Shown one piece after another: positions 9,977 through 61,260 of a stretch of 64,000 nt of DNA (positions are counted from its first letter, which is position 1; each line of letters begins with the position of its first letter). The stretch is from contig OZ025869.1 in NCBI GenBank assembly GCA_964019415.1, positions 13,138,930 to 13,202,929 of the forward strand. The letters are read 5' to 3'. The DNA is from Ianthella basta. Lineage: Eukaryota; Porifera; Demospongiae; Verongiida; Ianthellidae. The notes under the pieces were generated by a model, which worked only from the letters and a program-made list of their open reading frames with translations, was not told the origin of the DNA and did not search any database. Both the position numbers and the translations under genes were made by a program.

Positions 9977-12900
9977 TCAAACCTCAGTCCACTTCCACAT
10001 GCATAATTGGGATGCATTGTCTGTTCCACTCTTCAAATATTGCTCATCAAAACTAGAAGATAGTTCTTCTGTAGCTGCTAAGGGAACTTTAACTGGCCAC
10101 TTGGACGTTAGGTCAGGCGTAGAAGACTCACTCTTCTGCTGTAGCTCATCTACAGTTGGGGTGTCTTCGCATATTGGTAGATCTTCAGTCTCTGCTGTTA
10201 TCGCCTTGGTCGGTCCTGCTGGAGCTTTTTGTGGATGAACAGGTGGTGTAGGCTTAGCGGTACACTTTACTGATTCTGCTGACCCACCAGTACATTTGCC
10301 GTCTTGCATAAAATGCGTTTGGTACAATTGAAGTATCTGCCCACATTGGTCACATCTAGTCACTGCATCATTTGGGTTTTCATCTTGTGTGACTGCTTCT
10401 TCACTGCACCCATCTACCAGCTTTTTTGGTTTCTTTGATGACACTTCAGAGTCCTGTTTGTCCTCTACAACCTGGCCTTGCTTGCTTTCACTGTAAGTGG
10501 CACCCTGCACGTGATGTGGAATTATATATAACTTAGTTAAGGCAGAAAAGACTATAATTATATGTAAATGAATATGCATGCTATAAAGTACATTAACTGT
10601 ACTAGAATGTGCTGTATGCAGCAACTTGTATACATTAGCATAATACAGGCAGCTACTTATGTATATTTGTTACAATTACAAAGTATGATGCAGGAAATGT
10701 CATAATTATGATGATTGTACTTTACACCTCCATCGTGAATGTCTTCTGTATACTTACACAGTTGCAGAGACAGCTATGAGGTTAGCTATATAGTCTAGCC
10801 AAGTTCTAATATTATACTGATCATGATGTGTTACAGTATTTGCTACGAAACATACAGCATTCATCATGCGACAGTAGCCTCAAGAAGAACCCCCAACTGA
10901 CTTGTTGCTCCAAAATAAAGCTGTAAAATAGAAAACTATAGTGTCTAGTCTGCTTGCGATCACTCCCTAGTTAAAGCTAAATAAGTAATTGCCACAACTA
11001 TAGGGCTAGTATGTGTGTGTGTGTGTGTGTGTGTGTGTGTGTGTGTGTGTGTGTGTGTGTGTGTGTGTGTGTGTGTGTGTGTGCGTGTGTGTGTGTGTGT
11101 GTGTCTGTGTGTGTGTGTGTGTCTGTGTGTGTGTGTGTGTTTGTGTGTGGCAAGCAGTTTCATTGACAGAGAATGCGCAACCATCAACAATTCTGTAGCT
11201 AGCGGTGGCAGAGTTACTAACTACACAAACTTAGGTTTTTGGCCTGTACCACTCAATCCCTGAAGAGCGAAGACAGCTAACGAATGGATGGATGGATGGT
11301 GTGTGTGTGTGTGTGCTAGTGCACGCATACACGTTTTGTGTATGTGTATGTGCATGAGAGAGACTATGTGACTTACCTTTACTGCTTGTTCGAATTCAGT
11401 GGATGAATTTGCTTGCACTTTGTGCATGGCAGCAGGTGATGAGTTAGATGAAGACACTGGAGGCACAGCAACGTCAGGTGTTTCAGGGGTGGCAACCCTT
11501 GACACTTCCACAGGCCCAACAAGTGGCAATTCCTTGGGTGCAGCAAACACCAACTGCTGGGATGCATCAGTTGCAAGTGCTTCGGCTGCATCAGGATGTT
11601 GCATTGTGCCAGAATGATTCTGAATGCTCCCTTCTTTCCATGGGAACACCTACATGGAGTTGGGGATATGATACATGGTGCTTAGCAGAAGAGGTAAAGG
11701 ACCGCTATACGTACCATGTTGTATATACATACATACGTACCAGCAGCACACTAAATCAACCCATCTCATGCTACACACTGCACTTTACTACTGTAGCTAT
11801 ATATAGGTACACAGTCAATGTAGCATTACGATCCTAGCCATAATGTCCTATCCTATGTTTTGCATAGGGCCGACTGATGGCACGACCAATTACAGTCATA
11901 ATAATACATAGTGGGTGATCACAGTATTATTCAAGCTTGTATTCCTAATCCCAGACCTGCATGGTTCCTTGAAACACGACATCTCAGGATATACGTAAAA
12001 GGGCCTACGTTATTTCATTCTCACATGCAAGATAACATTACAATCATTAACTCTCACAGGTCCTCTTGTAATTGCCATCTTTGCCTCCGTAAGTTGACTC
12101 TGTAACTCAATGATTCTTTTCTCCTTTGCCTCCATTTTCTCCTGAAACTCCTGAATATGCCACTGGCAGAGGTCTTCCAATGTCTATGCATAAGTGAGCA
12201 AAATTAAACAATTGTCTTCATATAATACTCCCAGCACATGTTATCTACAGTTGTTACCTCTTTCTCCTTCTGTGCCAAGTGATACTTCCTTCTAAGCTCT
12301 GCCTCGGTCTCCTCCTTGGCAGGCTCATTCTCCGTCTCCTCATCACTCATTACCATCGTGAGTTCATTAATATGGCTTGCAGCTGCCAGTCTTTTTGACT
12401 CCGCAATGTGGTACTTAGCTTCATAGTCTTTTGCTTCTTCCTGCTTCCTCAAAAATAGCTCTTCTTTCTCCTTCACCTATACATGTAACAATGGTGTTCA
12501 TATATGGGTATAAAACCGTGGCTCTGCAATCATCATTGTAGGATGAACAAAGAATGCATGATCACTAGCTGATTAGTAATACCATGAATATAATTATATG
12601 TAGTGTTCAAATAAAGACTCACTTTTGCACCCAGTAGGTCAGACCTGTGTTGTAGTTGTCTTATGGAAATGTCTCGATGTTCAATTTCAGTCTGCAAATA
12701 CACCTGCAAGTATGTACGCATGGCAACACATTATGTAAAAGCACAAATAACAAATTTTATGCCTGAAGTGAAAAAATGCCAAACAAAACATATTTGTATA
12801 CAAATTCAATGCCACTACCAATAGCCCTCCTACCAATGATTTTCAGTAATAATTGCTTAACATGTTGATATTAGATAGCCAATATATTAGCTATCCACTA

Positions 12901-59300: not shown

Positions 59301-61260
59301 TCATTGTCTGTGGTGAAATCTGCAGATTTCACCAAGCAAAGGACATGTGTAATAGCTGCTATTAAGTTCTTTAGGGAAACCAAATTAAACCATTGGTTGT
59401 TGACCTCCACCGATTATACTACCCTCAGACTTGGATGTACGGCAACACATATTTAGGGTACTAAAATAATCTAATGCCTAAGGTAGAAATTTCATGTGCA
59501 TGCAAATAATATATTATACACAAAAGCAATTCTCTATAGTACAGTACGTGTTAGCCATGTTTACAATAACGGTTATTCTGGCTGGTATTATAGACTGAGA
59601 TTACTATTCACTATAAAGATGTGCTAGTGCGCGCCTTAGGCCATATGTTGTTCATGACAGACAGTTTGATGAATTCTATAGAACAGTACCGGGCCAACAA
59701 GGGACGCAGCTCCAGTGCTATGCACAAGCATTTCAACTATACTTCAATACATTGTCCCGCTAATTATCTGAGAGATTACTACACATAATGCTTTAAATTG
59801 CCTTCAAATATAGTTTGAAACTATATCAAAACCAAATACACATTTGTACTGCAACATAAAAATATAAATACTATGTCAGTTACACCTGCCCGTACCTTAG
59901 TACGATTACGTTCCGCAAGCAATATTCGTTTCTCAACATCTGATTCTGCAAACCTTTCCTGTTTGAGCAAATGAAGCTGTGTGTCTAACAGATGTAAAGT
60001 TTATCACATGCATGCACAGGCAATAATGCGATTACCCACCTCCAGTTCACGTAACCTCTGCTCAGCGGCAAGCATTGTCTTGAGCATGTTCTGCACATGT
60101 GGACATATATAAAATCATAATAATTGTAATTATATGACAAATATTGCTTCATTTCACTGAAGCGCTAATATTTATATGCCAATTGTACTTCATGCAGTGG
60201 ATGAGTTCAGGGAGGATTTCACAACCACCATAAGTTAATCAGATTACTAACAGCATTGTTGTCTCTAATTGTCTTAACCAAATTACCACATGCATCTCTT
60301 ACCACATCCAGACGTGAAACCACAATTTCCAACTCAGCAGCTTTGGGTCGTTGTTTTGGGTAGTCACTGAGGCAGAGCAGAATGAACTGTTTCAATGGAT
60401 GCAATGGATTCAGCTTTTGTAGATCACTCGCTCGGCGTTTTATTTCATGAATAGTGCCAATTCCCTCAATGTTTGGTGCAGGAGCTTGTTGTGTGCCAAT
60501 CTCCAGGAACAACACCCCAAGAGAGAACACATCCAGGCTTTCATCATACTTAGCACCCTCTGAACGCAGGCATTCTGGTGGCATGAACGGTATCATGCCA
60601 GGTGCTGCAGATGTTAAGAATTGATCTTTCTTAAAGTTTGACTGTCCAAAGTCACCAATTTTTGCTACTCCTTCAAAGGTAAACATCACATTCTTATCAT
60701 TGAGGTCACGGTGAACCAGGGGAGGGTTCAGCTGATGAAGGAAGGCCACTCCTCGGGTGATAGCCTGACAGATGCGGATCTGGTCTGGAATGCTGAGCTG
60801 GCCTCTACATCTTCCCAGAAATTGCCGGAGATTTTCCTTCATTCTCTCCATTACTAGAATAGGTCCTACATTCGCGTCTTCGAAGGCGCCACGGAATTCT
60901 AAAATGTCATAGAATAAACTGAGATAAATGAATCGGATGCATGGTCTAGCTAGTATATTACTATTTAGCTGCTGCAGAGAGGATCTATACTCTAAACACT
61001 AGCTGAAGCTACTCACTGACGACATTGGGGTGGTCCAAATCCATGAGTCTTTCGCACTCTTTGAAGAATTTGTCTACACCATTATCTCCGTCCCCGGCCT
61101 CTTTCAATAATCGGTGAATCTTCTTCACTGCGACCAGCTCGCCGGCAAGCTCTCCCTCGTGTACGGTTGCCCACGCTCCTCTGTCTATCTCACGACCGAT
61201 CTTCAAGTTTGCGGGCACTAACGGCAAAGGAAATCTTTGAGTGTACTCGATTTGCGCCAT
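56325..61260 (-). CDS. K4: near-identical copy of K3, frameshifted before the zinc-finger exon
   Basis: Exons parallel K3 with identical sizes: 61017-61260, 60303-60898, 60040-60090, 59896-59976, 59186-59266, 58288-58506, 58092-58217, 57380-57642 and 56325-56867. The kinase motifs are intact ([28 protein letters not shown]). The linker exon is 263 nt instead of 264: near 57421, K3 reads GCGCTTTCTGC and K4 GCGCTTCTGC. The frame shifts and stops at a TAA 5 nt before the exon ends, giving about 552 aa without fingers. The finger exon itself is still open, with finger 2 intact (CEKCGETFPWDRVHLRWKH) and finger 1 lost as in K3; its own stop comes four codons earlier (TGG to TAG). It is a recent truncation, or a sequencing error in a T run. 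Confidence 0.75.
57103..57332. repeat. (GT)n microsatellite
   Basis: K4 counterpart of 26616-26826, with three GTTAG interruptions instead of two. Confidence 0.95.
58892..58907. repeat. Poly-G run in K4 intron
   Basis: About 16 G; the K3 counterpart near 28437-28448 is shorter. Confidence 0.85.

What the first reader, a model, noticed from the sequence alone, without database searches (positions are those of the whole stretch)
9977..61260. Kinase and CARD genes sharing one NEMO-like 3' module
Minus-strand loci combine one of two 5' modules (TKL kinase in two exons, or CARD with a 7-nt coding exon) with phase-0 coiled-coil exons and a last exon of C2HC fingers (C-x2-C...H...C). In animals the kinase/CARD (RIPK) and the coil-zinc-finger (NEMO, optineurin) functions are normally on separate proteins that meet through ubiquitin. 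Here they look fused, in one cluster, with two interchangeable receptor-side heads. This could be an undescribed innate-immune signalling family.
Basis: partly seen in the sequence, partly recalled or inferred. Interest (0 to 1): 0.85.

Follow-up and report, generated by a model that had tools for sequence, protein, structure and literature searches.

The report
Kinase, CARD heads share NEMO-like tail
In what looks like an animal genome, some thirty neighbouring genes seem to join either a protein kinase or a CARD adaptor domain to one shared coiled tail with zinc fingers, and in a few of them the tail carries the ubiquitin-binding motif of the immune scaffold NEMO, so that parts usually found on separate proteins sit on one.

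Summary
The window cuts through one same-strand tandem array (C2, about 13.12-13.56 Mb of a 209-Mb genome). Kinase-coil-finger genes are real: K2 and K3 are open with GT-AG splice sites; K1 has a frameshift. All 55 finger-exon matches found genome-wide lie in this array; 21 of 26 kinases and 8 of 9 CARD pairs there have a finger downstream before the next head. dN/dS is below 1 in every module. The NEMO link holds in part: two array genes outside the window (KX1, KX2) join a TKL-like kinase to a UBAN motif (Pfam CC2-LZ 6.3e-6 and 2.5e-6; all 17 and 16 PDB hits are NEMO, ABIN or optineurin) and then fingers; a kinase-deleted copy with UBAN lies at 35.6-32.1 kb of the window. UBAN was not found in K1-K3 or the CARD-headed loci, and the fingers (H-x-C) are not NEMO-type. 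CARD-coil-finger units are supported outside the window, in frame from CARD into coil. The large CARD locus inside it (54.2-36.8 kb) belongs to a dispersed CARD-exon-D family and may be a separate gene. No transcripts could be checked.

The parts
56325..61260 (-). K1: kinase-coil-finger gene, exons 61260-61017, 60898-60303, 60090-60040, 59958-59896, 59266-59186, 59038-58997, 58506-58288, 58217-58092, 57642-57380 (frameshifted), 56867-56325; second finger only
   Evidence: manual model plus spliced alignment; 94% identical to K2 over 7.5 kb
25813..30781 (-). K2: open kinase-coil-finger gene, exons 30781-30538, 30456-29861, 29644-29594, 29512-29450, 28807-28727 (28723 in the aligner's model), a small exon ending at 28538, 28049-27831, 27760-27635, 27138-26875, 26364-25813; second finger only
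9977..15289 (-). K3: open kinase-coil-finger gene, exons 15289-15046, 14911-14316, 14101-14051, 13426-13367, 12703-12623, 12476-12258, 12183-12058, 11649-11377, 10504-9977; first finger only
   Evidence: kinase exon 2 in Pfam
16465..22890 (-). K4: kinase exons 22890-22644 and 22472-21913; coil matches at 21036-20923 and 18710-18546, other middle exons uncertain; finger exon within 17118-16465 with two fingers
32149..35617 (-). W35: copy of KX1 with the kinase deleted (5' flank and a piece of kinase exon 1 remain at 35617-35423); a weak UBAN copy from 35331 without a donor found; coil 35193-35125; UBAN exon 34917-34744; coils 34473-34432, 34193-34089, 34023-33934, 33738-33679, 33588-33514; finger block 33423-32149 with the finger unit tripled
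34744..34917 (-). UBAN exon (NEMO CC2-LZ-like), phase 0
   Evidence: PF16516 the only Pfam hit at E<=5, E 3.9e-6, 27.7 bits, cut-off 35.3
36800..54153 (-). C1: CARD gene of the dispersed CARD-exon-D family: 7-nt ATG exon 54153-54147, CARD exons 54052-53893 and 53159-52990, exon C 51910-51785, exon D 49749-48848, coil exons around 46.3, 42.4 and 41.9 kb; further exons near 39.6, 38.0 and 36.9 kb read by eye only; 3' end unknown
   Evidence: CARD 16.3 bits, below the Pfam cut-off of 23.9
2628..6958 (-). Left CARD gene: 7-nt exon 6958-6952, CARD exons 6797-6638 and 6184-6015, coil exons 5406-5239 and 5136-5032, linker exon ending 4520, degenerate finger exon from about 3311 to 2628; the CARD-to-coil splice was not found
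   Evidence: (CARD 16.1 bits, below cut-off)
470..1538 (-). CARD exon pair of the next unit; the next finger lies outside the window
24323..24736 (-). Extra finger exon below K2, one finger, no head of its own found
62618..64000 (-). Finger exons of the next unit upstream; no kinase or CARD head found for it

Best explanation
A tandem family of multidomain signalling genes in which one 3' module (coiled-coil exons, mostly phase 0, and a last exon with C2HC-like fingers) carries one of two 5' heads: a TKL-like kinase, or a CARD begun by a 7-nt coding exon. Most likely mechanism: the coil makes the products dimerise or oligomerise. In members that keep the UBAN (KX1, KX2), the coil binds Met1- or Lys63-linked ubiquitin chains as NEMO does, so chains built at an activated receptor would cluster the attached kinases and set off trans-phosphorylation. 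CARD-headed paralogues could reach CARD platforms and, through the same coil, bring in kinase-headed partners. Shown: exon order, open frames, selection, domain matches, unlike heads on one 3' module. Inferred: transcript continuity, dimerisation, ubiquitin binding, kinase activity, immune role.
For: Open GT-AG models for K2 and K3, KX1 and KX2, K393 and K437 (one over-extended exon there ran through a stop and was cut back). The same donor GTAAGA ends kinase exon 2 in K1-K3, KX1, KX2, K393 and K437, and the read-through beyond it is not conserved, so the kinase exon is probably spliced on. dN/dS over six non-independent pairs: kinase 0.14-0.25, coil 0.41-0.87 (one pair saturated), finger 0.20-0.56; CARD 0.16-0.63 over six pairs of four genes. 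KX1 and KX2 match PF07714 (4.9e-38, 3.3e-39) and PF16516 (6.3e-6, 2.5e-6); all 17 and all 16 PDB hits of their coils at E<=1 are NEMO, ABIN1, ABIN2 or optineurin. The CARD of C303 passes the Pfam cut-off (26.4 > 23.9); C303 and C127 share a small phase 1-to-0 exon that puts the CARD in frame with the coils. C303 and KX1 share their 3' halves, introns included, at 87-92% with no match between their heads. Array counts.
Against: No transcript evidence. UBAN only in a minority of units; PF16516 scores stay below the curated cut-off, although the UBAN exon of the genome's separate NEMO-like gene does so too (33.2 bits). Fingers are not NEMO-type and differ in integrity between units; in C303 itself the finger exon breaks frame inside its second finger. 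5 of 26 kinases and 1 of 9 CARD pairs have no finger found before the next head. Some introns of the aligner's models are not phase 0. Coil dN/dS reaches 0.87 in one recent pair. K1 is broken. No partner, expression or localisation data.
Confidence: 0.6

Rival explanations
1. Two separate tandem gene families: kinase (or CARD) genes alternate with coil-finger genes, without a fused transcript.
For: No RNA data. Heads of both kinds occur on other contigs, where no finger match was found; W35 stands without a kinase; the covariation of kinase and finger would also follow from duplication of blocks.
Against: Consensus donor at the end of kinase exon 2 with no conserved C-terminus beyond it; the first shared coil exon (51 nt) has no conserved ATG (NM in K1 and KX1, NI in K3, K393 and K437); coil exons, most of them phase 0, continue the frame of the head in six models; two CARD units carry a phase-adapting exon.
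Confidence: 0.12
2. NEMO resemblance is incidental: the tail is an ordinary coiled coil with C2H2-like fingers, and UBAN in a few copies is chance or a relic without function.
For: Most units show no UBAN; fingers match only generic zinc-finger and ribosomal proteins, weakly.
Against: UBAN is kept in two divergent copies with start codon and kinase (KX1-KX2 coil dN/dS 0.41), with the D-F-x-x-E-R-x-x-R-E core (importance of the core recalled), and PDB hits are restricted to UBAN proteins.
Confidence: 0.2
3. A largely decaying array: recombination makes chimeras and most units are pseudogenes or short-lived.
For: K1 frameshift, W35 kinase deletion, frame break in the C303 finger exon, degenerate finger in the left CARD gene, several finger exons without heads.
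Against: No stop in the joined models of K2, K3, K393, K437, KX1 and KX2 (the last four modelled without one or both ends) and dN/dS below 1 in every module.
Confidence: 0.1

Closest known systems
NEMO / optineurin / ABIN (UBAN family; PF16516 CC2-LZ)
   Same: UBAN motif followed by coil and C-terminal fingers in KX1, KX2 and W35
   Different: Kinase at the N terminus (CARD in sister units) instead of IKK- or TBK1-binding regions; fingers C-x2-C...H-x-C, up to two per protein. The genome also has a separate NEMO-like gene at C2:14.10 Mb, whose UBAN exon and last exon with one finger were read by eye, and a second UBAN match at 14.12 Mb
RIPK kinases (RIPK1, RIPK2)
   Same: TKL-type kinase and death-fold recruitment within one gene family (composition of RIPKs recalled)
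   Different: Kinase and CARD are alternatives on different genes here; no RIPK among the 60 listed of 2329 PDB hits
CARD-coiled-coil adaptors (CARD9/CARD11 type)
   Same: N-terminal CARD followed by coiled coil (their architecture recalled)
   Different: Finger exon at the end; tail shared with kinase-headed genes
CARD-exon-D-coil genes of the same genome
   Same: CARD exons, exon D and coil exons as in C1 of the window
   Different: No finger match outside the array; one copy at C2:12.46 Mb is followed by an AIG1 GTPase exon (PF04548 8.6e-18)

Membership tests
NEMO/UBAN family | UBAN ubiquitin-binding motif in the coiled coil | tested here: met
   Met for KX1, KX2, W35, though below Pfam's curated cut-off. 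Not met for K2, K393, C303 and two exons of the left CARD gene; no match at K1-K4
NEMO/UBAN family | NEMO-type C-terminal zinc finger | tested here: not met
   No model named for NEMO's finger in the Pfam lists; sequence and profile searches of the PDB show other zinc-finger and ribosomal proteins, no NEMO; spacing H-x-C
NEMO/UBAN family | N-terminal IKK/TBK1-binding region | not tested
   Its place is taken by kinase or CARD; no separate search was made
NEMO/UBAN family | binding of M1/K63 ubiquitin chains | not testable with these tools
   needs protein
Protein kinase (TKL-like) | kinase domain with VAVK lysine, HRD, DFG | tested here: met
   PF07714 4.9e-38 and 3.3e-39 for KX1 and KX2; [12 protein letters not shown] and GDFG read. 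The first glycine of the loop is missing
RIPK | kinase closest to RIPKs | tested here: inconclusive
   no RIPK among the 60 listed of 2329 PDB sequences; no tree with RIPKs was made
RIPK | kinase with CARD, death domain or RHIM on one protein | tested here: not met
   KX1 and KX2 models show no CARD or Death in Pfam; CARDs are on other units; RHIM not sought
CARD domain | Pfam PF00619 over cut-off | tested here: met
   C303 26.4 bits against 23.9. The two CARDs of the window that were scanned lie below: C1 16.3, left gene 16.1

The most novel reading that the evidence does not exclude
A lineage-specific innate-immune system in which receptor recruitment (CARD), ubiquitin sensing (UBAN coil) and kinase output are built from one tail gene with exchangeable heads: CARD-headed and kinase-headed paralogues pair through the shared coil to form a self-contained ubiquitin-gated kinase platform, and a fast-recombining single-strand array of some thirty units makes new head-tail combinations.
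Probability: 0.3. Interest if true: 0.88.

Novelty: new variant of a known kind. Interest (0 to 1): 0.72.

Why it matters
Kinase, CARD and UBAN scaffold are, in the animals studied (recalled; the review passages seen list no kinase- or CARD-headed member of the NEMO family), on separate proteins that meet through ubiquitin. A kinase joined directly to a UBAN coil would show that this circuit can be wired in one polypeptide, and gives a compact protein on which to test whether ubiquitin-chain binding alone activates a kinase. The array also offers a natural series of head swaps on a shared tail, and CARD- and kinase-headed products of one family whose pairing can be tested directly.

Tried and rejected
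C1 as a plain CARD-finger gene: set aside, because exon D and its coil exons belong to a dispersed family and the fingers below it to a kinase-deleted KX1 copy; a chimera of the two halves remains possible. That C1 lost an AIG1 exon: considered, weakened (31 matches to that one AIG1 query against 111 for exon D; none in the array). UBAN in the coils of K1-K3: looked for, not found (K2). RIPK kinship: not supported. NEMO finger: not supported. My first donor for kinase exon 2 of K1 (GTTAAG) was replaced by GTAAGA; one search used the older, longer kinase exon for K2 and a longer one for K3, and the KX1 and KX2 models end the kinase slightly early and, for KX1, lack the 51-nt coil exon seen later. 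The middle exons of K4 include a spurious stretch with stops. The joins between CARD and fingers are mostly noise. One search joined loci in the wrong orientation and was redone. Exon D: no Pfam or PDB relative. Structure prediction could not be run. Other animal genomes and RNA data are not in the collections. Literature: ten searches, whose listings were capped at 10-15 rows where more papers matched, listed no paper that I recognised as describing this architecture; beyond listings I saw passages of PMC10694592, PMC12909245, PMC11854354 and PMC6208332, no whole paper.
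Full report
WHAT WAS CHECKED. The window lies at C2:13138930-13202929 of a 209-Mb, 96-contig genome.

KINASE-COIL-FINGER GENES. A hand model of K1, extended by my own spliced protein-to-DNA alignment, gives ten exons for K1 and K2 and a similar set for K3: two kinase exons joined by a phase-1 intron, a run of small coil exons, a linker exon and the finger exon. Most later introns are phase 0 with GT-AG ends; the exceptions sit at very short or weakly placed exons. K2 and K3 are open; K1 has a 1-nt frameshift and an earlier stop relative to K2. 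K1 and K2 are a recent segmental duplication (94% over 7.5 kb). Two relatives outside the window, K393 and K437 (start of the kinase not modelled), have the same order with both fingers kept. Kinase exon 2 ends at the donor GTAAGA in K1, K2, K3, KX1, KX2, K393 and K437; in KX1, KX2, K1 and K3 what follows the donor is not conserved as protein. dN/dS by module over six pairs, which share members: kinase 0.14-0.25, coil 0.41-0.87 (K2-KX1 saturated), finger 0.20-0.56.

THE ARRAY. Searching the whole genome exon by exon: the finger query has 55 matches (E<=1), all on C2 between 13.12 and 13.56 Mb, all on the minus strand. Of 26 kinases of the two-exon type on C2:13.09-13.64 Mb, 21 have a finger downstream before the next head, at 3.4-9.3 kb. 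CARD pairs: ten rows, one of them a second, weak match sharing the same second exon; of the nine distinct pairs eight have a finger downstream before the next head, at 2.8-19.6 kb, C1 being the farthest. One unpaired CARD exon was left out of the count. The tool scores its best candidates only, so counts are lower bounds. Kinases and CARDs of these kinds also occur on other contigs, where no finger was found. In 30 of 30 fetched finger matches (of 55; the best-scoring ones) the pattern C-x2-C-x9..19-H-x1..4-C occurs at least once; with shuffled residues in a mean of 0.34 and at most 3 of 30. Over 14 units with both sequences in hand, kinase and finger identities covary (Mantel r 0.73, 0 of 2000); duplication of whole blocks would give this too.

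THE NEMO LINK. A coil exon at 34917-34744 of the window has one Pfam match: PF16516 CC2-LZ, the UBAN-bearing domain of NEMO (E 3.9e-6, 27.7 bits, curated cut-off 35.3). Its like stands in two array genes with an intact kinase: KX1 (C2:13325739-13316168) and KX2 (13332919-13326536), each with kinase, coil, UBAN, further coil and fingers (KX2 has lost the ligands of its second finger). The spliced proteins match PF07714 (4.9e-38, 3.3e-39) and PF16516 (6.3e-6, 2.5e-6). Against all PDB sequences the KX1 coil has 17 hits at E<=1, all of them ABIN1, NEMO, ABIN2 or optineurin (best E 0.0011), the KX2 coil 16, all ABIN1, NEMO or ABIN2 (best E 0.018). As a yardstick, the UBAN exon of a separate NEMO-like gene of this genome at C2:14.10 Mb scores 33.2 bits, also below the cut-off; a last exon with one C-x2-C-x12-H-x4-C-type finger lies downstream of it (by eye). 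Genome-wide, PF16516 has 19 matches at E<=1, six at E<0.005: 14.10, 14.12, 12.13 Mb, W35, KX1, KX2; two bacterial control genomes also ring at the loose limit, so the weak ones mean little. The UBAN exon itself as query finds seven places, among them one more in the array at 13.249 Mb (E 5.9e-7), whose head is unknown. Neither search lists K1-K4 or the CARD-headed loci. The coil of K2 finds only spectrin (two hits); Pfam finds no PF16516 in K393, C303 and two coil exons of the left CARD gene. The fingers find no NEMO zinc finger; the PDB hits are other zinc-finger and ribosomal proteins for the most part, mostly weak (best 0.0026). So 'NEMO-like' holds for the coil of some members and for the general plan, not for the fingers.

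CARD HEADS. Four CARD genes share the exon plan 7, 160, 170 nt (167 in C303): C1 and the left gene in the window, C303 and C127 outside. C303's CARD passes the Pfam cut-off (26.4 > 23.9); the two of the window are below (16.3; 16.1). CARD dN/dS is 0.16-0.31 in five pairs and 0.63 in C303-C127. In C303 and C127 a small exon (RTSAKRVRVEQ; MTSADRMRVETAPVQ), phase 1 on entry and 0 on exit, brings the CARD into frame with the phase-0 coil exons. C303 then runs through coil exons into a finger exon, whose frame breaks inside the second finger; the finger exon below the sister CARD at 13.314 Mb keeps both fingers (L041), but the middle of that unit was not fetched. For C127 I held the CARD and first coil exons, not the finger exon. 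In the left gene of the window I found no phase-adapting exon, and its finger has lost one Cys of the CxxC.

HEADS EXCHANGED. C303 (CARD) and KX1 (kinase) are alike, introns included, at 87-92% from the middle of the coil to the 3' end, with no match of 60 bases or more between their heads. W35 in the window is a KX1 copy: 97% over 1.8 kb of coil, with the 5' flank and a scrap of kinase exon 1 left behind. Recombination in the array has therefore replaced and removed heads on a shared 3' module.

C1. The large CARD locus carries exon D, a 301-aa exon with 111 matches in the genome and without Pfam or PDB relative, and coil exons that occur with exon D elsewhere. At C2:12.46 Mb such a gene is followed by an AIG1 GTPase exon; none was found in the array (a 75-residue match in the window at E 0.008 inside the left finger exon is taken as chance). 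C1 may end on its own before 36.8 kb, or be spliced into the headless W35. A second CARD-exon-D locus in the array at 13.387 Mb is also followed by fingers. This cannot be settled without transcripts.

HOW IT MAY WORK. Coil: oligomerisation. UBAN: binding of M1 or K63 chains, by homology with NEMO, optineurin and ABINs (review PMC11854354, passages seen). Kinase: VAVK, HRD and DFG present, so probably active. CARD: recruitment to CARD platforms. From these the best account is a scaffold whose kinase-headed form is clustered and switched on by ubiquitin chains and whose CARD-headed form links to receptors. Only the anatomy is shown. Sponges are reported to change expression of CARD genes, and one list includes a 'Tax1-binding protein', after microbial signals (PMC6208332, passages); this is context and no evidence for these genes.

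VERDICT. A real architecture under selection and, as far as ten capped literature searches show, undescribed; a new variant of the UBAN-scaffold kind with exchangeable heads.

Noticed in passing
48848-49750: Exon D: a 301-aa single-exon domain with 111 matches genome-wide, no Pfam or PDB relative; nine invariant columns over 21 copies.
   Followed up: partly
L072:4704-5822: A CARD-exon-D-coil relative at C2:12.46 Mb is followed by an AIG1/GIMAP-type GTPase exon (PF04548 8.6e-18): perhaps a CARD-coil-GTPase gene.
   Followed up: partly
43268-44279 and 50463-51441: Inverted pair of about 1 kb, mostly 90-100% alike in translated pieces, inside the C1 locus; looks like a pair of transposable elements.
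   Followed up: no
32149-33423 and 62618-63613: The finger unit is tripled or doubled within the finger block, 381-384 nt apart.
   Followed up: partly
C2:13033600-13039438 (L075+L035): A UBAN-like coil (E 0.0014; PF16516 E 0.011 with mistyped first letters) and a coil like the array's 219-nt exon lie on the minus strand, head to head with a related single-exon kinase on the plus strand (56%), about 90 kb from the array; a possible source of the fusion.
   Followed up: partly
contigs C8, C3, C11, C16: Groups of intron-poor TKL-like kinases 42-57% identical to the array kinases, several clearly in tandem.
   Followed up: no
window, e.g. near 4.9, 19.6, 34.6, 38.9, 55.7, 57.2 kb: Long (CA)n/(TG)n runs in and between these genes.
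   Followed up: no
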